Shown here: one piece after another, positions 16,752 through 30,100 of the stretch
How the letters are laid out: the number at the start of each line of letters is the position of its first letter
How positions within the stretch are numbered: the first letter of the stretch is position 1
Virus record (IMG/VR): IMGVR_UViG_3300034631_000061
Span: 1 to 36,700 of that record
Length of the DNA stretch: 36,700 nucleotides
Reading direction: 5' to 3' (one strand)
Source: a virus
The notes under the pieces: generated by a model
The model's input: only the letters and a program-made list of their open reading frames with translations
Databases searched by the model: none
What the model was told of the DNA's origin: nothing
Position numbers and translations under genes: made by a program

Positions 16752-17483
16752 TTACAGCATTCCGCCCTTTGCGATCAGCTGACGGCGCAAGGCGCGCATC
16801 GTGCTGGCGAGCTGGTCGGCGGACAGCAGCCGGTCCCAATAGGCGAGCGCGGCATATTGGCCGGCGCTGCGCACATAGAGATCGCCAGACGTCAGGGTCG
16901 AGGTGGCGAGCAGCGGATAGACGCCGGCGGCATCGATCGCGGTGCCGGCATTCCACGGCAGTCCATCGAGCGAGAGATAGATCCGCGACCCGTCGCATCC
17001 GATCGCGTACATGATCCAGCAGTCGAAGGACTTGCCCGGCACATCGCCGATCTCGCCCGTCTTGATATTGCCGCCGCCGGTGCCGGCCGAATAGACGAAG
17101 CCGCAATGCGCGCCGGCGCGGGTCAGGGAAATGCCGCGTCCCTCGCGGTCAGAGAGCAGGTAGGACTGCGCCGCACTTTCCGCGCGGTAGACGACGACGG
17201 CGGTGAAGCGATTGCCGGCGGCACCCGCCCCCCGGCGCAGATCGGTGGTCAGAATCGCCGCATTGCTGCCATTGGCGAGCAAGCCTTTCGACCAGCGGAC
17301 GTCGGCGGCCTGCGGATCGACTGCCATCGTCCGCCCCATGCCCGACTTGTCGAGCAGGTAGGTCTGTGGACCGAGAAAATCCCAATAGCCGAGCAGGCCC
17401 TCGGTCGGCAGGCGTCCGATGCCGGAGAGCGTGAGGGCGGCGGGCGCGACCAGGCCGCGCATGGCATAGGCAATCCCGCTCAC
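16752..17483 (-). CDS. tail-associated lectin-like protein
   Basis: 243 residues, start at GTG 17483 overlapping the esterase stop (GTGA). It carries GYWDFLGPQTYLLDKSGMGR and ends with LAYWDRLLSADQLASTM: features of concanavalin A/LamG-type jelly-roll domains seen in phage fibre and receptor-binding proteins. Strands such as RIYLSLDGLPWNAG fit the fold. It sits after the tail esterase at the end of the J-I-H block, suggesting a fibre tip or accessory adhesin. Family assignment is from pattern only. Confidence 0.65.
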   Translation of the reverse strand: MSGIAYAMRGLVAPAALTLSGIGRLPTEGLLGYWDFLGPQTYLLDKSGMGRTMAVDPQAADVRWSKGLLANGSNAAILTTDLRRGAGAAGNRFTAVVVYRAESAAQSYLLSDREGRGISLTRAGAHCGFVYSAGTGGGNIKTGEIGDVPGKSFDCWIMYAIGCDGSRIYLSLDGLPWNAGTAIDAAGVYPLLATSTLTSGDLYVRSAGQYAALAYWDRLLSADQLASTMRALRRQLIAKGGML

Positions 17484-19003
17484 GATACGGCTTCCTTGAA
17501 GCGGACGCAGGGATTGGCGAGATCCCATGGAGCATCCGTATTGATGAAATACCCCTGCGTCGTATCGCTATCGAAGAGACACCCGCGCGGGCCGGTCTTC
17601 GGGCCACTGGCGGTGCCGCCGGTCGTGTCCCAGGCATAGCGGACCTCCGGATTTCCGGCCATGTCGCGGCCGAGGGTCAGCAGCACCTCTTCCGGCCCGA
17701 CAATCTGCCGATTGACGATGGCGGTGCCGCCTTGGTCATCGACGAAGCGGAAGCCACCCTGACCGGGGTCGGTGACGATATCGGTGCGGAAGACGAGCGG
17801 GGCGACCGGCACGTGGAATCGTAGCAGCACCTTATTCGATCGATAGCGGATCACTTCGCGTGGGCGCAGGCCGGTCCATGCCGATCCGCGATAGACCGCC
17901 TCGTAGAGCGCGCGACCGAGGTGCTGGCCCAGCTGGGCATAGCCATTGCCGGTCATGTGGCGATCGTCGGAATATTCGACGTGATAGGCCGGGCACGCGA
18001 TCAGCAGCTCGCCCGCCTTGACCAGGTCGTAGAGCGCAGCGGCGGCGGTCGGCTGATAGGGCTGACCGGCCGCATAGTCGGTCTGTTGATCGGCATCCTG
18101 GATAAAGAGGAAGGGCAGCGACAGCTGGCCGGTGCGGGACCGGACGTCCGCCTTCACGTCGGTCATGAGCTGGCGCAGGGCGGCGCGATAGGTCGCGGTC
18201 GGCGTATTGACGTCGGCATTGCCCTGAAAGCCGCAGAATGCCCCGACCCGGTGGATATAGCCCGCTGTGTCGGACAGGCGGGCGGCATTCGCCACCTGCG
18301 CCATCAGGCGGGTGTAGGTATCGGAGCCCTTGGAAAGCTGCGCGAGCGGCGTGCCATTTTGGAAGCTGGTCGAGGCGAAGAGGCGATAGTCGTCGGCATA
18401 GCCATGGTCGGCGGCAATCAAAAATTTGAGCTGGGCCATCGCCGCCCACAGGATCTGTGCATTGCCGATCACCGGCATCGGCGCGAAGGTATCGCTTGGC
18501 CCGACGCTGGTGATGCCGCCGGAAAAGGTGAAGTCGCGGGGATCAACGCGCGGGCTGGAGTAGATCGCATTGCCGGCACCCATTTGCGACTGGCCCCAGC
18601 CCAGAAAATGGATCAGCGCCAGTGCGTGATGCGAGATGTCGCGGCGCGCCGGTCCGATCAGCCGGGCGCGCGGATTGAAGAATTGCCCGGTATCGAAGTG
18701 CGGGGTCAGGAATCGGCCGCTCGCAAAGCTCGCGCGGATGACGCTTCCGGCTTCATCGGTCAGCGCCTCGACCGGTCCTTCGACCACGCGATCGATCCGC
18801 GCGTCGGTCGCCAGCACACCCAAAGTGGCGACATGCCCTTCAGCCTGGGCGATGGCGGCATCGGCGCGGGCGAGGGCGGGGGCCATTGCGGCTTCGGCAA
18901 GTGGGCGCAGCGGCGTGCGGCGGGTGACGTCGCCGTCGAGGACCGGGACCGTTTCGATACCGGTCGGCGCAGCCAGCAGGGGGAGGGCGGAAATCTTGGC
19001 CAT
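17480..19003 (-). CDS. tail-fibre SGNH/sialate-esterase-like protein
   Basis: 507 residues. An N-terminal 125-residue part (helical; ARADAAIAQAEGHVATLGV) suits virion attachment. The catalytic domain has GQS (Ser139), QGN at 260-262 (Glu replaced by Asn) and DDRH (346-349). From about residue 130 it aligns through to its end with the lipoprotein at 7422-8783 (shared QLGQHLGR, YRGSAWTGLRPR, FRTDIVTDPG, KTGPRGCLFDSD, LANPCVRFKEA). It lies after H, the position of receptor-binding or depolymerase proteins. Most likely it deacylates a surface polysaccharide on adsorption; substrate unknown. Confidence 0.85.
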   Translation of the reverse strand: MAKISALPLLAAPTGIETVPVLDGDVTRRTPLRPLAEAAMAPALARADAAIAQAEGHVATLGVLATDARIDRVVEGPVEALTDEAGSVIRASFASGRFLTPHFDTGQFFNPRARLIGPARRDISHHALALIHFLGWGQSQMGAGNAIYSSPRVDPRDFTFSGGITSVGPSDTFAPMPVIGNAQILWAAMAQLKFLIAADHGYADDYRLFASTSFQNGTPLAQLSKGSDTYTRLMAQVANAARLSDTAGYIHRVGAFCGFQGNADVNTPTATYRAALRQLMTDVKADVRSRTGQLSLPFLFIQDADQQTDYAAGQPYQPTAAAALYDLVKAGELLIACPAYHVEYSDDRHMTGNGYAQLGQHLGRALYEAVYRGSAWTGLRPREVIRYRSNKVLLRFHVPVAPLVFRTDIVTDPGQGGFRFVDDQGGTAIVNRQIVGPEEVLLTLGRDMAGNPEVRYAWDTTGGTASGPKTGPRGCLFDSDTTQGYFINTDAPWDLANPCVRFKEAVS

Positions 19004-19006
19004 GTA

Positions 19007-20038
19007 TCAGTTTCCGATCGCGAGCCAGTCGAATCCGTCTAGGCCGCCATTGGCGTCGTCGGACTGGTACTGGACGGTGAAGCCGGCGGCGTCGGGATCG
19101 CCAACGAGCTGGCAGAAATAATCGTCGCTGGCGTTGGCGCTGGCGATGCGCGGGGTCAGCAGCACGCGGAAGCAAGCGGTCGGAAAGGGGACGTCGAAAG
19201 GCACGCGCAGCGAGATCTCGCTATTCGAGCGGCCCCGATACCCGCCCCATTTGTCGATGCGGCCGCCGGGCAGGGTGTAGGAGCCGGTGGCGGCGATGGT
19301 GGCAAGGTCGCCGAAATTCTTTGGGGTGAGCGCCGCATTGCCGGCGGTGCCGGCGCGCATCTGGGCAGCGGTGGCAGACGGGACTGAGATCGTCACGTCG
19401 CTCGCCAGCGTCTGCGCGCCGAAGGCGAGACCCGCCGTCTTGATCTGACGTGTCATCGGTACGCGCTCGGCGATCAGCGCGGTGATGGTCAGCAGGAAGG
19501 CGGTCAGCCGATCGGTCAGGCCGCGCGGGGTGACGGCGCGGGTCGCATCGGTGCCGGTGCCGACCTCAGCAGAGGTCGCCAGCTCGACCACGCCGGCGAC
19601 GGTTTCGGTCGCGGCGGGATTGAGAAAATTGGTGTCGCCGAAGGTGAGCGAGGTCGCGGTCCCGGTCGGGAAGACGAGGTCGATCGCGATATGCATCATC
19701 GAGCGCGCCGATTTCTCGAAGATCGGATCGCCCTGGGCGTAGACCGCGAAGAGCGTGCCGTCGGAGAGGAAAAGGCCGAAGCCACGAACCTCGTACTGGA
19801 TTTCCGCCGCGTCGCGCACGACCAGGTGGACGGTGTCGGCGCCGGTCGCGGCCCCTGAGATCGTCGCGACGCGGCGAAATTCGCCTGGCAGCGCGGTCAG
19901 CGTCGGTGCGGCGACGAAGGCGGCATTTGACAGGCCGACCGCCGATACGGTGAGGTCGATATCCTCGCCGAGCTGCGCGGCGGTAAAGCGCTGCAGCCCG
20001 GCCGAGGTGATGACGAGCGAAAGCGAGGGTACGGTCAT
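19007..20038 (-). CDS. H: P2 gpH-like tail fibre protein
   Basis: 343 residues. The N-terminal half (SLVITSAGLQRFTAAQLGED ... FLSDGTLFAVYAQGDPI) is the phage tail-collar/fibre N-terminus joined to the baseplate; residues about 150-175 (GVVELATSAEVGTGTDATRA) form a fibre repeat typical of the gpH/gp37 type. The rest is low-complexity beta-sheet; the last part likely carries the tip. It overlaps I by 4 bases. Shorter than P2 gpH; the receptor binding may have been passed to the two downstream proteins. Confidence 0.88.
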   Translation of the reverse strand: MTVPSLSLVITSAGLQRFTAAQLGEDIDLTVSAVGLSNAAFVAAPTLTALPGEFRRVATISGAATGADTVHLVVRDAAEIQYEVRGFGLFLSDGTLFAVYAQGDPIFEKSARSMMHIAIDLVFPTGTATSLTFGDTNFLNPAATETVAGVVELATSAEVGTGTDATRAVTPRGLTDRLTAFLLTITALIAERVPMTRQIKTAGLAFGAQTLASDVTISVPSATAAQMRAGTAGNAALTPKNFGDLATIAATGSYTLPGGRIDKWGGYRGRSNSEISLRVPFDVPFPTACFRVLLTPRIASANASDDYFCQLVGDPDAAGFTVQYQSDDANGGLDGFDWLAIGN

Positions 20039-20679
20039 GGGCGGGTGTCCAGATAGGTGCCATCGGCGGATTGGATCGGCTCGCCATTCTCGGTCTGCAG
20101 CAGGGCGTCCCAGGGCTGCGACCGGTCGTCGGTGTAGGTCATGCCGAGGCGGGTCTCACCCAGCACGCGGGCGACCGACTGGATTCCGGCACGTCCGGCG
20201 ACGGGAATCAGCTGCACCAGCGTGCCCTGGCTTCGCGCCGGCTTCACCCGCGCGACATCGCGGATGATCGCGTCGGCAAAGGCGGCGCGCGATCGGGGAC
20301 CGCCGTCGGCACCGAGCGGCAGGCGGATTTCGAAGGTGTGCGGGCGACCGCGCGGTGTCGTCTCGTGCCACTCGACCAGCTGCAGCAGATCGTCGAAGTC
20401 TGCGAGGACCCTATCGACGGAGGCGGGCGTGCCCTTGCGGCGCTGCTCGGCTATGGCATCGGCGACGGCGGCACGCTTGGCGGCATCCGTCCAGTCCGTC
20501 TCCCACCGGTCGACCGACAAATGCCAGGCGAGGAAGGGCAGCACCGCGGCGTCGATCGTCGCGGGATCCATCAGCGTCGAGACGGGCGTATCGATCGCGG
20601 TGACGCGCGACAGCGCGCGCTCTACGGCGCGCTCGAAGGCGGTAGCATTGGGCGGCAGGAGACTAGGCGTATCCAGCAT
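20035..20679 (-). CDS. I: P2 gpI-like tail/baseplate protein
   Basis: 214 residues with the family pattern: LLPPNATAFERAVERALSR, LPFLAWHLSVDRWETDW, KRAAVADAIAEQRRKGTPAS and VEWHE. It attaches the fibres to the baseplate. It overlaps J by 17 bases. Confidence 0.93.
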   Translation of the reverse strand: MLDTPSLLPPNATAFERAVERALSRVTAIDTPVSTLMDPATIDAAVLPFLAWHLSVDRWETDWTDAAKRAAVADAIAEQRRKGTPASVDRVLADFDDLLQLVEWHETTPRGRPHTFEIRLPLGADGGPRSRAAFADAIIRDVARVKPARSQGTLVQLIPVAGRAGIQSVARVLGETRLGMTYTDDRSQPWDALLQTENGEPIQSADGTYLDTRP

Positions 20680-21580
20680 GGGTCACCTGGATGCCGGTGC
20701 AGTGCGCCGCCTTCGTGCTATCGGGTACGATATCGATCCAACCCGGCAGCTCGACGCGCTCGACGCCGGCGACCTGCAGCGCGCCCTCGATACCGCTGCG
20801 CCGGATGGCACGGCCGAGCTTGCGGCTTTCGACGATATAGCGATCGAGCGCGGTGCGGCCGGCGGACAGGATCAGCGCCGCGTCTGGGCCGGAGAAGGTC
20901 CACACGCGGGCGTCGACGGCGAAAGGCAGGATGGTCGCCGATTGGACGGTGACCGCATCGGTCAACGGGCGCACCGCGCGATCGTCGACCTGCGCGCGCA
21001 CTTTTGCGAGCAGCGCGGCCGGGGCGGTGCCGTCGCCCTGCGCGGACAGCACCGTGACCACGACCTCGCCGGGGGCAGGATTGGTGACGCTCGCGTCGGC
21101 TACGTCGCCATCGGCGCGGCGGGCGAAGGCGACATAGGCGAGATCGGGGCCGGCGACCGAGAAGCTTTCGGGGGCGAGGACGATGCGCTGGCGAAAGGCT
21201 TCGTCGCTTTCCATCACGGCGTTGGTGCCGGTGACGGGATCGGCAGGCGTCAGGACAAGGCGGGGCAGGCCGACCAGGGCGCCGAGATGATCGAGATGCG
21301 CGCCGGTCGCGAAGGCCAGCAGCAGCTGGCGCGCGCTGTCATTGAAGTCAGCGCGGATCAGCATGATCTGGTAGGCGGCGGCCTGCAGCAGCATCATGAT
21401 CGGCTCGCTATCGAGCGTCGCGTCGAAGTCGGGATATTGCTCCTGCATCGCCGCGACCAGCGTGGCGACAATCGTGTCGAAGCCGGGCTGGGCGATCAGA
21501 ACCGGCGCGGGCAGGCGCGACAGGTCGACAGGGCTGGAGGCGGCGGCAAGGTCCATCGCCGGCCATGTCGTAGCGAGCAA
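20663..21580 (-). CDS. J: P2 gpJ-like baseplate wedge protein
   Basis: 305 residues. Signatures: LPAPVLIAQPGFDTIVATLV near the start, LLLAFATGAHLDHLGALVGL, ESDEAFRQRIVLAPESFSVA, and DVADASVTNPAPGEVVVTVL. The ATG 21580 gives the longest protein, but the palindrome-to-start spacing used by the other copies (55-60) would favour ATG 21556 (MDLAAASSPV). First gene of the J-I-H block. Confidence 0.92.
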   Translation of the reverse strand: MLATTWPAMDLAAASSPVDLSRLPAPVLIAQPGFDTIVATLVAAMQEQYPDFDATLDSEPIMMLLQAAAYQIMLIRADFNDSARQLLLAFATGAHLDHLGALVGLPRLVLTPADPVTGTNAVMESDEAFRQRIVLAPESFSVAGPDLAYVAFARRADGDVADASVTNPAPGEVVVTVLSAQGDGTAPAALLAKVRAQVDDRAVRPLTDAVTVQSATILPFAVDARVWTFSGPDAALILSAGRTALDRYIVESRKLGRAIRRSGIEGALQVAGVERVELPGWIDIVPDSTKAAHCTGIQVTHAGYA

Positions 21581-21603
21581 TGGTCACACGCCAGCGCGGC
21601 GGG

Positions 21604-21624
21604 GGGTAGAGTGCGTCTCTACCC
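21604..21624. promoter_or_regulatory. late-region palindrome, copy 2 (J block)
   Basis: GGGTAGAG-TGCGT-CTCTACCC, centre 21614. It overlaps the last codons of S. It is 34 bases from the longest J start or 58 from the ATG at 21556. The flank facing J is CTCTACCCCCC. Confidence 0.55.
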
Positions 21625-22296
21625 GGTGCCGTCGACCAGCGACGCCATGAAGGCTTCGGCGACCATCGCCCGGTCGGCATCGGTCAGGCCCAGCAGGCGG
21701 CGGCGGGCATAGCGCACCGGCTTTGCTTTCAGCGCCGGCTTGTCGACCAGGCCGTCCTGGTGGATGCGGCCGACGCGTGCGGCCTGTCCGGTGAAGCCGA
21801 TCCATGCCTCTGTGTCGGTCGCGCCTTCCTTCAGGTGGCGGGGCGACAGCAGCTTGCGGAACATCGCCTTCCGCCGGATGTGCCCCTTCCGGCGCAGGCG
21901 GCCGGCGCCTGCGTTGTCCTGCCCTTCGTCTAGCGGGAGCCACTTCTCCACGCGGTCGCGGTGGAAGGAGCGGATGGCGCCAGCCTTGATGTCGAAGCCA
22001 GTCATCAGCGGGCCGTCGAGCGTCCAGCTCTTCATGTAGACTTCGCGCGGGGCGGGATCGCCCTTGGGGTACAGGAAATGGACCGCCCGATTGCCGCGCA
22101 CCGGCTCCGGGCGCTTGCGGCGGGGCGCGAAGCCGCTGCCGTCCGGATTCTGCTGACGCTCGATCCGCGCGCGCTGGCCGGCGCGGACCTTTTTCGCGAC
22201 GCTGCGCAGGAGCTGGCGGCGGGCGGGCGCGTCGAGTTTGCGCAGCAGCGCCGCCGCCAGCGATTCGATCTGCAGCAGATCGTCGCCCTCGGTCAT
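21619..22296 (-). CDS. S: P2 gpS-like virion morphogenesis / tail completion protein
   Basis: 225 residues. Signatures: ALLRKLDAPARRQLLRSVAKKVRAG, NPDGSGFAPRRKR, and the basic C-terminus LGLTDADRAMVAEAF. It is longer than P2 gpS (about 150), with an added central stretch of about 60 residues (MKSWTLDGPLMTGFDIKAG). It overlaps R by 4 bases, and its 3' end carries palindrome copy 2. Confidence 0.88.
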   Translation of the reverse strand: MTEGDDLLQIESLAAALLRKLDAPARRQLLRSVAKKVRAGQRARIERQQNPDGSGFAPRRKRPEPVRGNRAVHFLYPKGDPAPREVYMKSWTLDGPLMTGFDIKAGAIRSFHRDRVEKWLPLDEGQDNAGAGRLRRKGHIRRKAMFRKLLSPRHLKEGATDTEAWIGFTGQAARVGRIHQDGLVDKPALKAKPVRYARRRLLGLTDADRAMVAEAFMASLVDGTG

Positions 22297-22763
22297 GCGG
22301 GTACGATGGTCATGCCGTCATCGAGCAAACCCTGCAGCAGCGACACGCCACAGACGCCGGGGAAGGCGTCGACCAGGACCGGCTCCGGCACATGGGTCGC
22401 GACGAATGCGGCCTTGGCCGTGCGCTCGACCAGTACCAGCTCGGACAGCTCCAGCTCGATCGACACGTCGGCGGTATCCGCGTCGAGCAGCTCGCTTTCG
22501 AAGGTGAAGGGCTCATGCGGCGCGCGGTCGAGCAGGTCGGGCTGCTGCTCGGCCACCCAGGCGAGGATCGGGATCATCAGCGCGTCGGGCGAGCCGGTAT
22601 AACCTTGGACCACCAGCGACAGCGTGTAGTGGTAGCGGAAGCTGAGATTGGCCCCGCGCCGGCATTCGATCCGCCCGCGATCGATGAAGGTCGCGAGCTT
22701 TTCGGTCTGGCCTACCAGGGCGGTGGCGTAGAGGAGCTGGCGCAGGGTCTCGGGCTTTCGCAT
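22293..22763 (-). CDS. R: P2 gpR-like tail completion protein
   Basis: 156 residues from ATG 22763 (MRKPETLRQLL); a GTG at 22766 would add one residue. The pattern MRKPETLRQLLYATALVG, RGRIECRRGANLSF, and LVVQGYTGSPD is the gpR family's. R and S finish the tail end before joining to the head. Confidence 0.9.
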   Translation of the reverse strand: MRKPETLRQLLYATALVGQTEKLATFIDRGRIECRRGANLSFRYHYTLSLVVQGYTGSPDALMIPILAWVAEQQPDLLDRAPHEPFTFESELLDADTADVSIELELSELVLVERTAKAAFVATHVPEPVLVDAFPGVCGVSLLQGLLDDGMTIVPA

Positions 22764-22767
22764 CACG

Positions 22768-22959
22768 TCACTCCGGCGGGAGCAGGATGAAAGCGGTGAT
22801 CATCGTCAGGATCGCCGCGCCGCCGAGTGCATCGGCGAGGTGCGGTGATTTGCCTGATCGGCGGGCGTGCCACCGCAGTCCGGCCGACACGAAGGCCAGC
22901 AGGAAGCCGGCCGCGCCCAGCGCCACACCCAAATTCTCTTTCATGTATTCTTCGCTCAT
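22768..22959 (-). CDS. small two-span membrane protein (63 aa)
   Basis: Starts at MSEEYMKENLG (22959); the ATG overlaps the stop of the SGNH gene (ATGA). Helix 1 is about 10-31 (GVALGAAGFLLAFVSAGLRW) and helix 2 about 42-62 (LADALGGAAILTMITAFILL). Could be a second holin/antiholin or a conserved structural-operon membrane protein. The true holin candidate is at 25689. Confidence 0.65.
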   Translation of the reverse strand: MSEEYMKENLGVALGAAGFLLAFVSAGLRWHARRSGKSPHLADALGGAAILTMITAFILLPPE

Positions 22960-24137
22960 GCGACCCGCTGCAGCCGGTACGGATCGACCGCCCGGGCGCA
23001 CAGCGGCACCCCGACCTCATTCAAATGGACCCCATCGCTGGTGATGCCAACGCCCGCCTCTCCAGCGCCGCCGGGGAGGATCAGGAATTTCCCACTGCGT
23101 CGCGAGGATTCGACTGCGGCATTGATGTCGAAGACGCCTTCGAAGCCGGCTGTCCCACCCAAAATCGTGTCATTTCCGGCAAGCCGGTGGGGCTCGCTTG
23201 CGACGGGCGATTGCCCCGCCAAGGTATTGTATGCGCCACCGGACGCCAGCGACACGCGTGGGTAGAGCGTCGTCTCCCACCACGATTTGTCCGGCTGCAG
23301 CGCACGCACCGCCTGGCGACGGGCGAGCATTTCCGCTGCCGTCGCGCCCGCCGCGAGATCATTCGTGCCCATGCCCAGCACCGCGTGCGACACGTAGGGC
23401 AGGAATTGGCGGCGCATCTCGCTCGACGCGAGGAAATTGGCGAGCGTCTGGCTGGCGCGGCTGAGGTGGAGGGTGCCCATCACCTGCGGGATGCGCGCCA
23501 GCTCGCCGGCCCACCAAAAGCGGCGCTGCTCGGCGTTCGGATCGCCCTTGCTGTCGCAGATGAGACCCGCCGTCGCTTTTCGCGTCCATCCGAAGATACC
23601 GGTGTGCCGGTAGATCTGCTGCTGACTGGCATCACCGGTCCAGGCTTGCCCGGTCAGGTCAGCCTGCGACGCCGAGAAGGACGTCATTTCGCCACCCGCC
23701 GGATAAAAATGATTGCACATCGGCGATCGGAAGGAGCCATTATTGCCATTATTCAGGAAGGCATCCATCCAGACGGGACCGCCCCCCCTCCACATATTGG
23801 GGATCGGATAGGAAAATTTCATGGCAGTACCGGGCTGGATCACCACGAAGTCGGCGCCGCCCCACGTGACGCGGTACCACCCGGTCGATGTGAGCAGCGC
23901 ACGACGAAGGGTGAATGGGCCGAGGTCAGCCCAAGATTCCGCTGTCTGTGTCAGGTAGAAATTGGAATCGCAGATCTGGAAATAGTCGGGATCGTCGCGA
24001 AGGAATTCGACGCAGCGGCTCATTGCCCGCCGATACGGATTGAGCGTCGTGTCGGCCGGCACACCGCGCGACCCGATCGGCCCGAAATAGGGGCGCGGCT
24101 GACGCAGCCCGCCGATGGCGCCGGAGCTGCGCATCAT
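22956..24137 (-). CDS. SGNH hydrolase, probable head-spike fibre
   Basis: 393 residues with the SGNH residues in order: CDSKGD (Ser196), GMGTND (Asn259) and SDGVH (Asp368, His371). The N-terminal 190 residues are strand-rich and include SNFYLTQTAESW, typical of phage surface enzymes. ATG 24137 overlaps the stop of the spike-base-like gene (ATGA). It lies in the head/lysis operon, not among tail genes. In RcGTA the pair spike base + spike fibre makes capsid spikes that bind host polysaccharide; this pairing suggests the same here. It shares no evident similarity with the other two esterases. Confidence 0.75.
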   Translation of the reverse strand: MMRSSGAIGGLRQPRPYFGPIGSRGVPADTTLNPYRRAMSRCVEFLRDDPDYFQICDSNFYLTQTAESWADLGPFTLRRALLTSTGWYRVTWGGADFVVIQPGTAMKFSYPIPNMWRGGGPVWMDAFLNNGNNGSFRSPMCNHFYPAGGEMTSFSASQADLTGQAWTGDASQQQIYRHTGIFGWTRKATAGLICDSKGDPNAEQRRFWWAGELARIPQVMGTLHLSRASQTLANFLASSEMRRQFLPYVSHAVLGMGTNDLAAGATAAEMLARRQAVRALQPDKSWWETTLYPRVSLASGGAYNTLAGQSPVASEPHRLAGNDTILGGTAGFEGVFDINAAVESSRRSGKFLILPGGAGEAGVGITSDGVHLNEVGVPLCARAVDPYRLQRVA

Positions 24138-24487
24138 GCTTCCGCGACCATATTGAGGGCGGTGGTGCCGGTGGCGCGGATGTGCGAGACGCGCACCGCG
24201 ATGTACGACGCATCCGGCAGGTTGCGGTAGGTGACGTCGGCCGACGATCCGACCGGGCGCAGGACGACGGTGCCGCCCGTCCCGACATAAATGCCGCGCG
24301 GGAGCGGATTGAGCGCCACCGTGTCGCTGGGCACCACCGCATAGGCGATCCGGGCGGGCAGGATGGCTTCGAGCAGCGCTTTGAGCCGGCCCAGCAAGGT
24401 CAGCGGATTGGGATTATCGACCACCTGGCCGAAGGGCTGGCTGGCCTGCTCGGCGGCGGCGGCGCGGTCCTCGATCGTCGTCTTCAC
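24134..24487 (-). CDS. spike base protein, RCAP_Rcc01079-like
   Basis: 117 residues from GTG 24487 (overlapping the previous stop, GTGA). The C-terminal half has VGTGGTVVLRPVG, TYRNLPDASYIAVRVSHIRA and TGTTALNMVA: the signature of the spike-base family first seen in RcGTA (GhsA). The N-terminal 45 residues (DNPNPLTLLGRLKALLEAIL) would be the capsid- or trimer-contacting part. Directly followed by an SGNH hydrolase, its likely fibre partner. Confidence 0.75.
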   Translation of the reverse strand: MKTTIEDRAAAAEQASQPFGQVVDNPNPLTLLGRLKALLEAILPARIAYAVVPSDTVALNPLPRGIYVGTGGTVVLRPVGSSADVTYRNLPDASYIAVRVSHIRATGTTALNMVAEA

Positions 24488-24801
24488 TGTGCAGGGTCCT
24501 TGCAGGCGGTGGCGTCGTGCCACCCGATCAGGCGGAGGAGCTGGTCGCGGGTGTCGCGCAGGGCGGTGGCCATGCGGATCGTGGCGGCGCGGACGCCGGC
24601 GGGCATCGTCGCCTCCGCATCCACCGGATAGCCGGCGGGCGCGGGCGGGCAGCGCAGCAGATCGGCCGGGGGCGTGTCGCGGATCTCCACGGCGACCGGC
24701 ACCGATTTAGCGACCGGCGGGCGGAGCGCGCAGCCCGGCAAGGTCATTGAGAGCAGCAAACCAATCGCCGTCGACGCGATCGGTGGGGGCAGCTTTGGCA
24801 T
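24484..24801 (-). CDS. Rz1-like outer-membrane spanin
   Basis: 105 residues from ATG 24801 (MPKLPPPIASTAIG), beginning inside the Rz gene in another frame (95-base overlap), the classic Rz/Rz1 arrangement. Signal peptide with lipobox LPGC, then a Pro-rich segment (PPVAKSVPVAVEIRDTPPA) and a helical end. The lipoprotein partner of Rz bridges the periplasm and fuses membranes at lysis. Confidence 0.8.
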   Translation of the reverse strand: MPKLPPPIASTAIGLLLSMTLPGCALRPPVAKSVPVAVEIRDTPPADLLRCPPAPAGYPVDAEATMPAGVRAATIRMATALRDTRDQLLRLIGWHDATACKDPAQ

Positions 24802-25204
24802 CGGCGGCTTCCATTCTCTGGGTGGCGGCGCGCGCCGCCTCGGCGGCGGCGCGGGCATGGGCGGCATCGGTCTGAGTACGGGCGTCGCGCTCGCGCATTG
24901 CCGCCGCCAGCGTCGCGGCGGTCGTGCTATCGCTGTCGGTGCGGAAGGCGGCGAGGTCGACGATGGTGGCCTTGCAGCGCTGGCCGGCGGCATATTTCAC
25001 GCGCTTGCCGTCGACCGTCTGGACCGAGGCGGCATAGGTGGTGCCGGCGGCGGCGCAGATGACCTCAGCCCATTGCAGCGCGCGGTCGCGCTCACCGGTC
25101 ACCCGCGACCACTGGACGTAGAGGAAGGCGGCGGCGGCACCGACGGCGATCAGCGTCAGCCACTGGCGATCGATGCCGATCGCGGCGAGCAGGCGGCGGA
25201 TCAT
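24707..25204 (-). CDS. Rz-like inner-membrane spanin
   Basis: 165 residues from MIRRLLAAIGIDRQW (25204), overlapping the endolysin stop by 4 bases. One N-terminal transmembrane helix (about 13-33, LIAVGAAAAFLYVQW) then long helical periplasmic coils rich in Ala and Arg. It nests Rz1. The C-terminus is where spanin-spanin contact should occur. Confidence 0.8.
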   Translation of the reverse strand: MIRRLLAAIGIDRQWLTLIAVGAAAAFLYVQWSRVTGERDRALQWAEVICAAAGTTYAASVQTVDGKRVKYAAGQRCKATIVDLAAFRTDSDSTTAATLAAAMRERDARTQTDAAHARAAAEAARAATQRMEAADAKAAPTDRVDGDWFAALNDLAGLRAPPAGR

Positions 25205-25692
25205 AGCGACGCATACTCCCGCGCGGCGTCGAAGGACGGGCACGCCTTGATCCATTCGAAGCTGTCGATCCGGCCATTGCCATTGCGATCGGGCGAATAA
25301 TCGCGGTGCCCCTTGATCGTGGCGCGCGGGAAGCGGGCGCGCAGCGTCGTCAGCAGGGCGATCAGCGCCTTGCGCTGCTCCGGCGTGCGGGTGTCCTTCG
25401 GCTTGCCGGCCGCATCGGTGCCGCCGACATAGCAGACGCCGATGGTGTGGGCATTGTACCCCTTCACGTGCGCGCCGATCTGCGCCAGCGGGCGGCCGGT
25501 CTGGATGCTGCCATCAAGGGCGATCACGAAATGATAGCCGATGTCGGCATATCCCTCGGCGCGATGCCAGCTCCGGATGGTGGCGACGCTTACGTCGCGA
25601 CCTTCCGGCGTGGCCGAGCAATGCACGACGATGCCGTCGATGCGTCGCGACAGTGCGGCCTGCGCCGCAAATTGCCAGCTCGTCAGGGTCAT
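25201..25692 (-). CDS. endolysin, T7-lysozyme-type N-acetylmuramoyl-L-alanine amidase with an EF-hand-like loop
   Basis: 163 residues. Zinc ligands His24 (IVVHCSAT), His129 (KGHRDY) and Cys151 (ACPSFD); GYHFVI around Tyr53 matches the T7 lysozyme tyrosine. Between His129 and Cys151 sits DRNGNGRIDSFE (135-146), a textbook 12-residue calcium-binding loop (D-x-N-x-N-G-x-I-x-x-x-E). It cleaves the amide between MurNAc and L-Ala. No signal peptide, so the holin must export it. It overlaps the holin gene by 4 bases. Confidence 0.93.
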   Translation of the reverse strand: MTLTSWQFAAQAALSRRIDGIVVHCSATPEGRDVSVATIRSWHRAEGYADIGYHFVIALDGSIQTGRPLAQIGAHVKGYNAHTIGVCYVGGTDAAGKPKDTRTPEQRKALIALLTTLRARFPRATIKGHRDYSPDRNGNGRIDSFEWIKACPSFDAAREYASL

Positions 25693-26024
25693 TTGGTGCC
25701 TCCGAAGATGCGGTCGCGGATCGCGGCGGGGATCGACACCAGCGCGTCGATCACCGCGCTGGCGAAGCGGGGCGTGGCACGGAAGGCGATCATGCCGGCG
25801 GTGAAGACGATCCCGTCGACCACGAAGGTGTGCAGGTCGAAAAGCCCGACGATCGCGCCGCGCGCGAAATACGACACGACGGTGCCGACCGCGAATTGGG
25901 TGAATTTCTCGGTCCAGCTCAGCCCCTTTTCATAGGCAAGGCTGACCGCCGCGCCCATCGCGCCGGGGACCAGCCCCGCCAGCAGGGCGAGCAGGGTGTC
26001 GAGGATGGTGAGCAGCTTGCCCAT
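25689..26024 (-). CDS. putative holin
   Basis: 111 residues from MGKLLTILDTLLALLAG. Predicted transmembrane helices are about 7-28, a possible 46-65 (FAVGTVVSYFARGAIVGLF) and 70-90, with an amphipathic end. Directly upstream of the endolysin and spanins, the usual holin position. Specific family not determined. Confidence 0.75.
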   Translation of the reverse strand: MGKLLTILDTLLALLAGLVPGAMGAAVSLAYEKGLSWTEKFTQFAVGTVVSYFARGAIVGLFDLHTFVVDGIVFTAGMIAFRATPRFASAVIDALVSIPAAIRDRIFGGTK

Positions 26025-26025
26025 G

Positions 26026-26241
26026 TCAGTCCCAAAGCTGGAGGAGGGGGCGGGTGGCCGGCGCGGATGCGGCGGCGGTGGGGATGATGATCGCGGTGCC
26101 GGCGGGCAGGACCGGACCCAGCGCGGCGAGGCCGGGATTGGCGGACAGGACGGGGCCGATCGCCTCCGGCCCCAGGCCCCGGTCGCGGTGCAGGATCAGG
26201 TCGAGCGTGTCGCCCTGGCGCGCGGTGACGGTGTCGGCCAT
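26026..26241 (-). CDS. X: P2 gpX-like tail protein
   Basis: 71 residues: MADTVTARQGDTLDLILHRD, PGLAALGPVLPAGTAIIIPT. A LysM-like ARQGDTLD...NPGLA pattern typical of gpX. The gene starts inside the stop of L (TGATG overlap). In P2 X lies between L and the holin, as here. Confidence 0.88.
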   Translation of the reverse strand: MADTVTARQGDTLDLILHRDRGLGPEAIGPVLSANPGLAALGPVLPAGTAIIIPTAAASAPATRPLLQLWD

Positions 26242-26741
26242 CACAGCAGCTCGGCCGGGGCGCGCGGCTCGCCCCGGATGTCGCGGATGGCATGGGCGGC
26301 GTCGCGGCGCAGCTCGGCGATCGACGGATCGAGCGCGCCGGCGTCGCGGTCGCCGCCGGCGGTGGTGTCGATGTCGCGGTGCCGCTCGATCAGCTCGGCC
26401 TTGGTCAGCGCCGCGATCGCGCGGTGGAAGGCGATGACCAGGCGGCTTGTGCCGGCGAGCCGCTTTCCCGGCACATCGGCGAGGGTGGCATGGCCGGCGA
26501 GCTGCCATGCCGCCGCCTGTGCGCCGACCTGATTGTCGATCGACAGCAACGCTTCCTGCACGGCGGCGCGCAGGCGGGCCGGGGTCACGACCTGGACGGT
26601 GCCGATGCGGTGGTCGCGGCGCAGCTGGTCGAGGTCGATCGCGGGATACCAGTCGTCGGCGATCGTGCCCTCGACCGTCGTCGCGGCTTCGGGGATGACC
26701 GAGCCGAGGCAGGTGCCGCCGATGGTGCCAAAGCCGCTCAT
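26241..26741 (-). CDS. L: P2 gpL-like head completion protein
   Basis: 166 residues from ATG 26741 (MSGFGTIGGTCLGSVIPEA). Family features: a strand-rich start with DDWYPAIDLDQLRRDHRIG and the helical core AAWQLAGHATLADVPGK ... RDAAHAIRDIRG. It seals the head after packaging. It overlaps X by 1 base and the upstream membrane gene by 4. Confidence 0.9.
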   Translation of the reverse strand: MSGFGTIGGTCLGSVIPEAATTVEGTIADDWYPAIDLDQLRRDHRIGTVQVVTPARLRAAVQEALLSIDNQVGAQAAAWQLAGHATLADVPGKRLAGTSRLVIAFHRAIAALTKAELIERHRDIDTTAGGDRDAGALDPSIAELRRDAAHAIRDIRGEPRAPAELL

Positions 26742-26962
26742 GCGCCGGCGATCGTGCGCAGGATCGCGCAGGCGGCGGCGATGAAGGTCACGACACCCGT
26801 GACGCTGATGCTGACCGAAATCGTCAGCGCCTCCACGGCGCCCATGCCCAGATCGGCCGACCAGCGACGGCTGTCGGCCATTCCGACGGCTCCGATGAAG
26901 GCCAGCAGCGCACCCATCAGGAGCGCGGCGGAAAGGGCGAATAGGAGGGCGGCGTGGGTCAC
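26738..26962 (-). CDS. small two-span membrane protein (74 aa)
   Basis: GTG start at 26962 (VTHAALLFALSAALLMG); a longer GTG at 27013 is also possible. Two transmembrane helices: about 4-26 and about 45-70 (ISVSISVTGVVTFIAAACAI). It overlaps L by 4 bases. Function unknown. Confidence 0.55.
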   Translation of the reverse strand: MTHAALLFALSAALLMGALLAFIGAVGMADSRRWSADLGMGAVEALTISVSISVTGVVTFIAAACAILRTIAGA

Positions 26963-27074
26963 GAGGCGAGCTTTCGAAAATTCGGGGGTGGAGGCCGGAG
27001 GAGCGTGGCCCACAGCCCGAAGGCCCTCCCACGTCGTGCGACCTGCCCCCGAGACGCCGGGGGGCGAGCTGGTG

Positions 27075-27152
27075 TCAGCGTCGGCCGGAGATCAGGCCGA
27101 GCAGCAGGCATCCGAGGAGGATGCAGGCGTAGAGAAAATCGGGATCGCTCAT
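27075..27152 (-). CDS. micro membrane protein B (25 aa)
   Basis: A very short open frame MSDPDFLYACILLGCLLLGL... with one transmembrane helix and a basic C-terminus (SGRR). It begins 2 bases after the stop of a similar micro protein (27154-27225). Shared start pattern with that protein (x-x-P-x-D-F-L-x-x-C-I). Probably translated by coupling. The region between it and 26962 shows nothing else coding. Confidence 0.45.
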   Translation of the reverse strand: MSDPDFLYACILLGCLLLGLISGRR

Positions 27153-27153
27153 G

Positions 27154-27225
27154 TCAGCGCGTATTTGCGATGCAGATCATGAAAAGGCAGGCGATGCAGA
27201 GGAAAAGGAAATCGGCGGGCATCAT
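27154..27225 (-). CDS. micro membrane protein A (23 aa)
   Basis: MMPADFLFLCIACLFMICIA..., one hydrophobic helix over most of its length. ATG 27225 overlaps the gpM stop (ATGA) and has a strong GGAG 5 bases upstream. Likely paralogue of the next micro protein. Function unknown. Confidence 0.5.
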   Translation of the reverse strand: MMPADFLFLCIACLFMICIANTR

Positions 27226-27980
27226 TCAGTCTCCGGCTTGGCAGCGGCGAGGCGCTTCTCGACGGCCTTGATGGTGGTCTTCACGCCGACGCGATCGTGC
27301 AGGGCCTGCGCGGCCTTCATCGCGGTCAGCGAGCGGATGAGGAGAGGCGCGGCGTCGGTGCCGGCCATGGCCTGGGCGGCGCGGTCCAGCTCGACGCCGA
27401 TCGCCTTCAGCAGCTTGGCGCGCACTTCGTCGTGCATGTCGTCGTCGGCGGTCAGCGCCTCGACCTGCTCCAAGATGGCGAGGTCGAAGGGCTGGCCGGC
27501 GGACTGCGCCTTGATCGCGGCATCGGCGATCTCCTCGACGATCAGGGTCGCGGCGTCGCGGGCATAGCGCGTCGGCATCGCGACCTTGTGGGCGAGGACA
27601 TGCTCGATCAGCGGCATCGCGCCGACGAAATCGCCCACGTCGATCCGCCAGACCATGACGGTCGGCAGCACGTCGCCCGACACGCCGGCACCGGCGGCCT
27701 GCGCGCCCGACAGCAGCCCGGCGACCCAGGCGGCATATTCGGGCAGCATCTCACGTTTTGCCGCGATCTTGTGCGCGATCGACTTGATTTCCTTCAGGCG
27801 GCGCAGATCGTGGGTGAGGCGCGCGCCGACCTGGGCGGCGGCGATCGTCGCGGTGCGGTCCTGCGCCGATGCGTAGAAGGGGACCTCCACCGCCGGAGCG
27901 GTGGAGGTGACGTCGCCCGAGGATGCGAGCGCGGTCATTTCGGCCAGGACGCGGTCCCGGTGCTTGCGAGCGAGGCTCAT
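27222..27980 (-). CDS. M: P2 gpM-like terminase small (endonuclease) subunit
   Basis: 252 residues. Start MSLARKHRDRVLAEMTAL; the pattern LMLRLTHDLRRLKEIKSIA..., VGDFVGAMPLIEHVLAHK and LDRAAQAMAGTDAAP is typical. It would recognise and cut cos; the candidate cos is at 34324-34345. Placed after N, as in P2. Confidence 0.9.
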   Translation of the reverse strand: MSLARKHRDRVLAEMTALASSGDVTSTAPAVEVPFYASAQDRTATIAAAQVGARLTHDLRRLKEIKSIAHKIAAKREMLPEYAAWVAGLLSGAQAAGAGVSGDVLPTVMVWRIDVGDFVGAMPLIEHVLAHKVAMPTRYARDAATLIVEEIADAAIKAQSAGQPFDLAILEQVEALTADDDMHDEVRAKLLKAIGVELDRAAQAMAGTDAAPLLIRSLTAMKAAQALHDRVGVKTTIKAVEKRLAAAKPETE

Positions 27981-28025
27981 TGCGCTGATCCTTTCGAGCG
28001 GCGTGTCAGGGGAAGGTCAGCCCGG

Positions 28026-29081
28026 TCAGGGCTTCTTCTTCATCTGGATGTTCTCGACGAGGGCGCAGCGGCCGTAATCTTCGACGACGTAGGCCTCATT
28101 GACCGACTGGAAGTCCTGGATTTCGTCGAATTCCGGCGCGTCCTTGATCTGGCGGCGGCGGCTTTCGGCCTGGACATAGATCGCCAGATTATCGAGGCTG
28201 GTGATGAGCAGCGACGTCGGCGGGAAGAAGGGCACGACCACCGCGACCTTGCCGCCGATCTGCTTCGGCAGGGTCAGGATGCGATTGCGCGCCTCCATCT
28301 CCGTCGCCTTGTCGCCGGCGGCATTGATGATATTCGCGTATTTGTCCTGCAGCAGGTCGCGGCCGACGATCACGACCAGATCGGTGTCGTCGCGGTGCCA
28401 TTCGTCGAGCAGCTCGGTCGCGTCGAAGACCAGCGCGTCGAGATTGACGTAATCGACGTCGCCACCCGGCGTGCCGGCCGCGACGTAGATCGCCTTGGTT
28501 GCGTCGGGGGTAATCCCGCCGTCCGACATCACACGGTCGGGCGCGAAGGTGCGGATCTTGTAGAGCCAGCCCAGATTGACGTCCTGCAGCATCGGGTTGG
28601 CGGTGATGTCGGTGGTGTCGGCGCGCGACGTGCCATTCCACCCGATCATGATCCGATCGCGGCCCTGCTGCTTGACGATCGTGTCGCGGATCAGCGTCTG
28701 GAATTCGGGGCGGTGCGCCCACATGTCGAGCTTCGCATACTTGATGCCGACGTCGGAATTCGTCTGGGCGCAGAAATAGCGACCCTTATCGGCGGTGTCG
28801 GTCGGGTCGACCGGCTTGCGCCGGACGCCGGTCGCGCTGTTGGTCAGGGTCCGCGATGCGATCGGGCGGGTGACGCCCAGGCCGACCTTTGCGCCCTCCT
28901 GCTGCTTGACGGTGACGATCGAGATTTTCGACAGGAAATCGGACGATTTCTGGATGATCTCTTCGAGCTTCTGCTCGACCACCGGGGCGACCGAGAAGGT
29001 GACGGTGGCGTCGCCCACGCCGTTCAGCGTGGCGATCTGGCCGAGATAGGCATTGTAGGCGAGGCGGGTGTCATTGCGCAT
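28026..29081 (-). CDS. N: P2 gpN-like major capsid protein
   Basis: 351 residues, close to P2 gpN (357). MRNDTRLAYNAYLGQIATLN at the start and FSVAPVVEQKLEEIIQKSSD, then the middle VGLGVTRPIASRT. HK97-like fold expected. AGGACACCCCC precedes the ATG. P2 gpN is trimmed at its N-terminus by gpO; the equivalent site here is not identified. Confidence 0.95.
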   Translation of the reverse strand: MRNDTRLAYNAYLGQIATLNGVGDATVTFSVAPVVEQKLEEIIQKSSDFLSKISIVTVKQQEGAKVGLGVTRPIASRTLTNSATGVRRKPVDPTDTADKGRYFCAQTNSDVGIKYAKLDMWAHRPEFQTLIRDTIVKQQGRDRIMIGWNGTSRADTTDITANPMLQDVNLGWLYKIRTFAPDRVMSDGGITPDATKAIYVAAGTPGGDVDYVNLDALVFDATELLDEWHRDDTDLVVIVGRDLLQDKYANIINAAGDKATEMEARNRILTLPKQIGGKVAVVVPFFPPTSLLITSLDNLAIYVQAESRRRQIKDAPEFDEIQDFQSVNEAYVVEDYGRCALVENIQMKKKP

Positions 29082-29126
29082 GGGGGTGTCCTGTGCGGCG
29101 GGGGCTGGGGCGGGGCGGGCGGGGGA

Positions 29127-29993
29127 TCAGCAGTCGGTGACCATCGTGGCGCCGCCGCCGGTCGCGGGCTTGCGACTGAAATTGTCGGGAGCGGGGGTCG
29201 TATCGAGCTTGGCCTCGATCGCCTTGAAGCGCGCCTCGGCGGCGACCTGGCCATCGGCGATCGGCTTGATCGCGTCGGCGATGGTCGTGCCCAGCGCGGT
29301 GATCGCCTGGGCAAAATTGTCATTGGCCGGGGCCTGCGCGCCGGTGCCGCCGGTCGTGGCAGGCGGCGATGGCGGGGGCGTCGGCTCGGCCGGCTTCGAC
29401 GAGAATTGCGCGGCGACGGTGGCAAAGCCGGAGACGATCGCGGCGACGATGCCCTTGCTCTCGGTCGTCGGATCGTCGAGCGCGATGTCAGCCTCGATCG
29501 CGGCGGTGAAGAGATTCGCCTTGTCCTGCTTGCGCGCGGTGAAGGGATTGGCGTCGCCCTTACCCGCCGCGAATTCGAGCATTTCGGTGCCGAGCGAGGC
29601 GGGATTGTCGGTGACGGCCAAACCGACCAGGCCGGCTTTGCCGGAGCCGCCCATGTTCGGCGTGATCTCGCACGAGGTGAAGAGCTTCTGCTTGCCGCGA
29701 TTGATCGCGAGCAGCTGGTCATTCGGCTCCAGCGAGGCGAGCAGCGCCAGTCGCTTTTCCTTCTTGCCAGCGACGTCGATCTCGATCTCTTCGGCCTTCA
29801 GCGCGTCGACCACACCGTACGAATTGAAGGGCGGCTCGGGGCTGTAGCCCCGGATATGCTCGCAATTGATCGATGCGGTGTAGGTGGCGCGATTATAGCC
29901 TGCCGCCATCTGCTCGATCCATGCGCGCTCGATCACGCGCCCGTCGGTGGTGCCGCCCTCGACGGCGATGCGGAAAAAGCGGGTCTTGGCCAT
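29127..29993 (-). CDS. O: P2 gpO-like scaffold / protease
   Basis: 288 residues with an N-terminal protease region (MAKTRFFRIAVEGGTTDGR, ASINCEHIRGYSPEPPFNS; His48 is a plausible catalytic residue) and a Pro/Thr/Ala-rich helical scaffolding C-terminus (ANDNFAQAITALGTTIADA). First gene of the capsid operon; palindrome copy 3 is 97 bases upstream. Confidence 0.92.
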   Translation of the reverse strand: MAKTRFFRIAVEGGTTDGRVIERAWIEQMAAGYNRATYTASINCEHIRGYSPEPPFNSYGVVDALKAEEIEIDVAGKKEKRLALLASLEPNDQLLAINRGKQKLFTSCEITPNMGGSGKAGLVGLAVTDNPASLGTEMLEFAAGKGDANPFTARKQDKANLFTAAIEADIALDDPTTESKGIVAAIVSGFATVAAQFSSKPAEPTPPPSPPATTGGTGAQAPANDNFAQAITALGTTIADAIKPIADGQVAAEARFKAIEAKLDTTPAPDNFSRKPATGGGATMVTDC

Positions 29994-30079
29994 GGGGTGC
30001 GGTCCTCGGGGGTCAAATGCCGGGCAGGGCGATGACCGCCACAGGGGCGGAAGGCGGGCCGCTTCTCAAGCGTGGTGGG

Positions 30080-30100
30080 GGGTAGAGTGCGTCTCTACCC
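30080..30100. promoter_or_regulatory. late-region palindrome, copy 3 (between O and P)
   Basis: GGGTAGAG-TGCGT-CTCTACCC, centre 30090, in the divergent gap between the capsid operon and the terminase/portal operon (57 bases from the P start, 97 from O). P2 has its P_O and P_P late promoters, each with an Ogr site, in exactly this gap. One palindrome here could serve both directions. Confidence 0.65.

What the first reader, a model, noticed from the sequence alone, without database searches (positions are those of the whole stretch)
22956..24487. RcGTA-style head-spike pair (spike base + SGNH hydrolase) in a P2-like head operon
A small spike-base-family protein is translationally coupled to an SGNH hydrolase, in the head/lysis operon far from the tail-fibre block. 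In RcGTA such a pair forms capsid spikes for polysaccharide binding. A P2-like virion with head spikes that also carry a hydrolase would be a second receptor-engaging device in addition to the tail esterase.
Basis: partly seen in the sequence, partly recalled or inferred. Interest (0 to 1): 0.7.

Follow-up and report, generated by a model that had tools for sequence, protein, structure and literature searches.

The report
Phage head spike carrying an esterase
This P2-like phage of sphingomonad bacteria carries a two-gene cassette that most likely builds spikes on the virus head, each ending in an enzyme for the host's slimy polysaccharide coat, and the same swappable cassette turns up in bacterial slime-synthesis gene clusters and in gene transfer agents.

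Summary
Window 24134-24487(-) encodes a 117-aa spike-base protein (NF048002 'spike base, RCAP_Rcc01079', 79 bits, cut-off 28). Its predicted jelly roll matches only two solved proteins clearly, both from virion capsids: the RcGTA head-spike base and a Carin-1 capsid chain. The next gene, 22956-24137(-), overlaps it by ATGA and encodes a 393-aa SGNH-type esterase with an invariant S/N/D/H set.

I surveyed about 100 related loci. The base is usually followed by a fibre gene whose body varies freely but whose first ~12 residues do not. These are LGLGL-like, as in RcGTA, or (here) SGAIGG-like, matching two classes of base C-terminus. Upstream of the base, 39 of 58 loci have the major capsid gene.

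The cassette is an optional insert between lysis genes and gpR in P2-like prophages. The slot is empty in many relatives and holds different esterase fibres in close ones. The same pairs sit in Sphingomonas exopolysaccharide loci of genomes with a spike-less GTA cluster. In one genome the prophage fibre is 72% identical to the exopolysaccharide-locus fibre.

Best reading: RcGTA-type head spikes carrying a polysaccharide esterase. Virion location and enzyme activity are inferred, not shown.

The parts
24134..24487 (-). Spike-base protein, 117 aa (GTG start). Long N-terminal arm (residues 1-43) and jelly-roll core (44-117); C-terminus ...NMVAEA ('AEx' class).
   Evidence: NF048002 79 bits, cut-off 28; PDB 6tb9 E 2.9e-6; AlphaFold core pLDDT ~95, Foldseek and VIA-align to 6tb9 and 8cjz.
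22956..24137 (-). Spike-fibre protein, 393 aa: N-terminal docking-like peptide, beta-rich domain, C-terminal SGNH-type esterase domain.
   Evidence: ATGA overlap with the base gene; PHROG_8480 E 1e-23; full-length homologues L008 and phages Lo5R7ANS and QDWS.
24105..24137 (-). Docking-like N-terminal peptide MMRSSGAIGGL.
   Evidence: SGx(1-4)G within the first 16 residues in 18 of 20 fibres that follow an AEx-class base, against 2.1% of 2004 control N-termini.
23019..24089 (-). Exchangeable beta + SGNH module (about residues 17-373), found elsewhere on an LGLG-type docking peptide (L076, L067), on no docking peptide (L008, Lo5R7ANS) and at the end of a 759-aa fibre (L120).
   Evidence: Alignments A5 and A6, L120.
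23025..23036 (-). Catalytic D368-G-V-H371 (SGNH block V); nucleophile S196 at 23550-23552.
   Evidence: S196, N259, D368 and H371 invariant in A5 and in A6.

Best explanation
The two genes encode an RcGTA-type capsid spike. The base protein assembles as a pentamer on the five-fold capsid vertices made of the P2-type capsid protein gpN (inferred). It holds the fibre by a short N-terminal peptide (SGAIGG) in its central pockets (inferred by analogy with the RcGTA IALGLGLGL peptide). The fibre carries a beta domain and an SGNH esterase that binds and deacylates the host's acylated exopolysaccharide or capsule (inferred). This retains or moves the virion in the slime layer before the tail engages. 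The fibre body is exchanged between phages, GTA-type clusters and host exopolysaccharide loci while the docking peptide and base are kept.
For: Shown: family and fold of the base. Its two strong structural matches (Z 12.0 and 11.9, the next 5.2) are both chains of capsid entries, RcGTA and phage Carin-1. Across 58 non-redundant loci the gene upstream of the base is a Phage_capsid MCP in 39, with other capsid, portal or terminase genes in several more; 13 of 53 downstream genes are gp6-like head-tail connectors. Fibre N-termini are conserved by class although bodies are unrelated. The window's enzyme module occurs on the other docking type in L076 and L067. Fibre bodies are GDSL/SGNH, SASA, polysaccharide deacetylase or LamG. 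A natural swap: L002 has gpN 93%, gpR 99%, base 81% but a different SGNH fibre. Chromosomal pairs lie among glycosyltransferase genes, the GTA MCP is present in 6 of 7 of those genomes with no spike base beside it, and a prophage fibre is 72% identical to the exopolysaccharide-locus fibre of the same genome. Literature: RcGTA base pentamers sit on capsid pentamers and hold the fibre by residues 2-10 (PMC7296036).
Against: No virion data. In the P2-like genomes the cassette is not next to the capsid gene, except in L017/L033 where it lies between terminase and scaffold. The base's long N-terminal arm differs from the short RcGTA arm that contacts the capsid, and binding to gpN was not modelled. 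PHROG_12296 labels the base family 'tail fiber', and in phage P8625 the base follows a tail-fibre gene. The model of the fibre is poor (pLDDT 52). Block I reads CDS instead of GDS.
Confidence: 0.72

Rival explanations
1. The pair is a tail-associated receptor-binding unit: the base is an adaptor on the tail or baseplate and the esterase a side fibre.
For: PHROG_12296 label 'tail fiber'; in L008 the cassette lies between tail-fibre and tail genes; the base of Verrucomicrobia phage P8625 follows a tail-fibre gene; the gpR/gpS neighbours are tail-completion genes.
Against: Both close structural relatives are chains of capsid entries; MCP is the upstream neighbour in 39 of 58 loci; a pentameric base, as in RcGTA, suits a five-fold vertex rather than a three- or six-fold tail.
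Confidence: 0.14
2. The SGNH protein is a lysis accessory: an esterase that helps release progeny from the polysaccharide-coated cell, and the base is incidental.
For: The cassette directly follows holin, endolysin, Rz and Rz1, and the Rz1 stop overlaps the base start.
Against: The base-fibre pair is kept in loci without lysis genes (exopolysaccharide loci; next to MCP; between terminase and scaffold in L017); fibre N-termini follow the class of the base; bodies include non-enzymes such as LamG.
Confidence: 0.08
3. The pair is a decaying or domesticated insert with no role in the virion.
For: The slot is empty in many P2-like relatives (L164-L171, L174-L179); L003 and L008 have the docking peptide on short ORFs.
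Against: Both frames are intact and overlapping; catalytic residues are kept; the base stays 71-82% identical among the closest P2-like relatives with different fibres beside it.
Confidence: 0.06

Closest known systems
RcGTA head spike (Rcc01079 base + Rcc01080 fibre), Rhodobacter capsulatus
   Same: Base family and fold; small base gene directly followed by a fibre gene; short N-terminal peptide on the fibre; link to polysaccharide (RcGTA spike genes lie beside capsule genes, PMC10218006).
   Different: The window fibre is an SGNH-type esterase with an SGAIGG rather than LGLGL peptide; the base has a long N-terminal arm and an AEA C-terminus; the host element is a P2-like contractile phage.
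Cobetia phage Carin-1 capsid spike (PDB 8cjz chain h)
   Same: Base fold Z 12.0 over 72 residues; a true phage.
   Different: T7-like podophage. The source paper (d'Acapito 2023) was not held; that it describes RcGTA-like short capsid spikes is from memory.
Agrobacterium phage 7-7-1 capsid fibres
   Same: Contractile phage of an alphaproteobacterium with one fibre on each of 11 capsid vertices (PMC12796354).
   Different: Flagellum-binding; the proposed anchor is an Ig domain of a linker protein; no enzyme; no spike_base protein mentioned in the passages read.
P2-like sphingomonad prophages (L002, L003, L010, L159)
   Same: Same backbone and slot; base 67-82% identical with L010 lowest; SG-type docking peptide.
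   Different: Different fibre bodies: another SGNH, LamG-like with a 48-aa docking ORF, polysaccharide deacetylase, and an exopolysaccharide-locus-type SGNH.

Membership tests
RcGTA-type head-spike base (spike_base, Rcc01079 family) | Sequence match above the curated cut-off | tested here: met
   79.2 bits, cut-off 28.
RcGTA-type head-spike base (spike_base, Rcc01079 family) | Jelly-roll fold of 6tb9 | tested here: met
   Foldseek E 1e-5; Z 11.9 over 84 residues.
RcGTA-type head spike (two-gene device) | Fibre gene directly downstream | tested here: met
   ATGA overlap.
RcGTA-type head spike (two-gene device) | Fibre N-terminus with alternating (iso)leucine/glycine docking peptide | tested here: inconclusive
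   Window has SSGAIGGL, a class-specific SGxxGG motif paired with AEx bases; that it binds the base is not shown.
RcGTA-type head spike (two-gene device) | Pentameric base on capsid vertices | not testable with these tools
   Needs virions or complex modelling; no multimer prediction on hand.
RcGTA-type head spike (two-gene device) | Fibre body related to Rcc01080 | tested here: inconclusive
   No PDB relative found for the fibre; Rcc01080 itself was not aligned. Fibre bodies vary freely across the family.
SGNH/GDSL hydrolase | Catalytic Ser, Asn, Asp and His in blocks I, III, V | tested here: met
   S196, N259, D368, H371 invariant in A5; block I Gly is Cys in the window protein.
SGNH/GDSL hydrolase | Profile match | tested here: inconclusive
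   PHROG_8480 E 1e-23 but no Pfam GDSL hit.
SGNH/GDSL hydrolase | SGNH fold | tested here: inconclusive
   Low-confidence model (pLDDT 52); top Foldseek matches are PVA esterase, peptidoglycan O-acetylesterase, CE2 esterases and GDSL lipases.
SGNH/GDSL hydrolase | Esterase activity | not testable with these tools
   Needs purified protein.

The most novel reading that the evidence does not exclude
Sphingomonad temperate phages and the hosts' own gene transfer agents share one exchangeable capsid-spike system. An adaptor pentamer accepts any enzyme or lectin bearing the right 10-residue peptide. Spare pairs are stored in the exopolysaccharide operon whose product they act on, and capsid-borne esterases prime entry through that polysaccharide.
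Probability: 0.4. Interest if true: 0.8.

Novelty: new variant of a known kind. Interest (0 to 1): 0.62.

Why it matters
Phage receptor enzymes are usually placed on tails. A head-mounted, plug-in esterase spike would give P2-like phages a second, orientation-free way to grip or loosen slime. It would link phage host range to the gene transfer agent and exopolysaccharide biology of the same bacteria, and the short docking peptide would be a simple, testable handle for displaying proteins on capsids.

Tried and rejected
Pfam and NCBIfam for the fibre: no hit. PDB sequence search for the fibre: no relative. Close-relative scan of viral contigs with the fibre: none; an alignment-based scan gave only four loci. 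The structure model of the fibre from six sequences is too weak to prove the fold. Window proteins other than the base did not identify the many non-P2 loci, so neighbours were annotated by profile. Gene position as an argument for the head was dropped, because the cassette sits in at least three different places in P2-like genomes. The docking-motif regular expressions were written after seeing the first set; on a fresh set of 30 Sphingomonadales loci the fixed LGLG expression matched 17 of 30, against 6% of controls, missing several Tyr variants. One of the two SG matches there, L142, is the same locus as L034, so the SG class has no independent validation. No promoter-like site was found in 20000-30100. 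Papers on Sphingomonadales GTA head spikes or P2-like head spikes: none found in the held library.

Full report
Observation. The window is a 36.7-kb virus record with a P2-like gene set: capsid gpN (TIGR01551), gpL, gpR and gpS. On the - strand the order is holin, endolysin, Rz, Rz1, base (24134-24487), fibre (22956-24137), a 62-aa putative membrane protein (22768-22956), gpR, gpS. Each of the two starts overlaps the stop before it, so translational coupling is likely.

The base. It exceeds the curated cut-off of NCBIfam NF048002 'spike base protein, RCAP_Rcc01079 family' nearly three-fold and matches the solved RcGTA head-spike base by sequence. AlphaFold with 22 natural homologues gives a confident core. 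Against the PDB only two chains stand out: Carin-1 mature capsid chain h (Z 12.0) and the RcGTA capsid entry 6tb9 (Z 11.9); the next is 5.2. In RcGTA, pentamers of this protein sit on capsid pentamers and hold the fibre by its residues 2-10, IALGLGLGL (PMC7296036). That Carin-1 carries RcGTA-like spikes is my recollection of a paper that was not held.

The fibre. PHROG_8480 (lysophospholipase L1-like esterase) matches at 1e-23. Full-length relatives occur in L008, Mesorhizobium phage Lo5R7ANS and Shewanella phage QDWS; Ser196, Asn259, Asp368 and His371 are invariant. A low-confidence model finds SGNH carbohydrate and polymer esterases in the PDB, which agrees but does not prove it.

Docking peptide. 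In about 100 loci with a spike base the next gene usually starts within a few bases of the base stop. Its body is unrelated from locus to locus but its first dozen residues fall into two classes. Where the base ends in ALY, GLA or similar, the fibre starts like MxGLGFGxG, as in RcGTA. Where it ends in AEA or similar, as here, the fibre starts like MxRxSGAxGG. SGx(1-4)G appears in 18 of 20 AEx loci and in 2.1% of 2004 control N-termini; the LGLG pattern in 41 of 76 others and 6.0% of controls. These loci are related and the expressions were made after the fact, so the numbers describe rather than test. On 30 loci fetched later the fixed LGLG expression held in 17. Two cases are telling. L003 and L008 put the SG peptide on short separate ORFs before other receptor-like proteins. 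The window's enzyme module appears behind an LGLG peptide in L076 and L067.

Head or tail. In 58 non-redundant loci the nearest upstream gene of 200 aa or more is a major capsid protein in 39, and other capsid, portal or terminase genes in several more. Downstream genes include 13 gp6-like connectors. Together with the two capsid structures this argues for the head. In P2-like genomes the cassette moves: between Rz1 and gpR (window, L002, L003, L010, L159), between terminase and scaffold (L017, L033), or among tail genes (L008).

An optional, exchangeable insert. In fourteen more distant P2-like relatives (L164-L171, L174-L179) no base or known fibre is found and Rz/Rz1 runs straight into gpR. 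L002, whose gpR is 99% and gpN 93% identical to the window's, has a different SGNH fibre with no significant similarity to the window's. L010 carries a polysaccharide deacetylase. L163 has in the same slot an unrelated small beta protein followed by an esterase-like fibre with a GQSN motif; that small protein resembles Lo5R7ANS gp61, which precedes a relative of the window's enzyme.

Link to exopolysaccharide and GTAs. In Sphingomonas and Novosphingobium chromosomes the same base class and fibre peptide lie among glycosyltransferase and pyruvyl-transferase genes (checked in L030 and L032). This is the arrangement reported for RcGTA spike genes beside capsule genes (PMC10218006). Six of seven such genomes hold a GTA-type capsid gene 65-71% identical to the one in L057. 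In all seven a spike base lies at the chromosomal pair's locus; only one genome has a second, in a prophage. The GTA cluster of Sphingomonas sp. Leaf32 (terminase, portal, capsid, GTA-gp10, hub) has no spike base. In the MAG G306 a window-like P2 prophage (terminase 91%, gpR 87%, base 77%) has a fibre 72% identical over 376 aa to the exopolysaccharide-locus fibre of the same genome. In a tree of bases, P2-like members fall in several places among chromosomal and other prophage members; L010 groups with the chromosomal bases L028/L029 at 95/85.

Mechanism. Shown: genes, families, base fold, conserved fibre N-termini, exchange of bodies, linkage. Inferred: pentamer on gpN vertices, docking of SGAIGG in the base pockets, esterase action on acylated host polysaccharide, role before tail attachment. 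I put the head-spike reading at about 0.72; tail placement is the main rival.

Novelty. RcGTA spikes, and probably Carin-1 spikes, are known. A P2-like contractile phage with this device, an esterase as the spike body, and the shared exopolysaccharide-locus/GTA pool were not found in the held library. I file it as a new variant of a known kind.

Noticed in passing
L163:3449-5673: In the slot used by the spike cassette, another P2-like prophage has an unrelated 105-aa beta protein followed by a fibre with a SASA-like GQSN esterase motif; the small protein resembles Mesorhizobium phage Lo5R7ANS gp61 (BLASTP E 6e-6), which precedes a relative of the window's SGNH fibre. Possibly a second, non-homologous base type.
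   Followed up: partly
L028-L036: Spike base + SG-type fibre pairs inside Sphingomonas/Novosphingobium exopolysaccharide loci, in genomes whose GTA cluster lacks a spike base.
   Followed up: partly
L120:2651-4930: The window's beta + SGNH module forms the C-terminus of a 759-aa fibre in another phage.
   Followed up: no
L017:7680-8252 and L033: Spike-base ORF with an extra N-terminal domain (190 aa in all), in a P2-like prophage with the cassette between terminase and scaffold.
   Followed up: no
L043:4086-4604: Two tandem spike_base genes without a docking-peptide fibre.
   Followed up: no
L019-L023, L072-L075, L080, L093, L095, L100, L102-L106: Spike_base genes without a recognisable docking-peptide fibre, next to genes that read as terminase, capsid, portal or connector genes: perhaps bare vertex caps.
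   Followed up: partly
window 17480-19003: Tail-region protein with a SASA carbohydrate-esterase domain (Pfam E 1.7e-7), so this phage may carry polysaccharide esterases at both ends.
   Followed up: no
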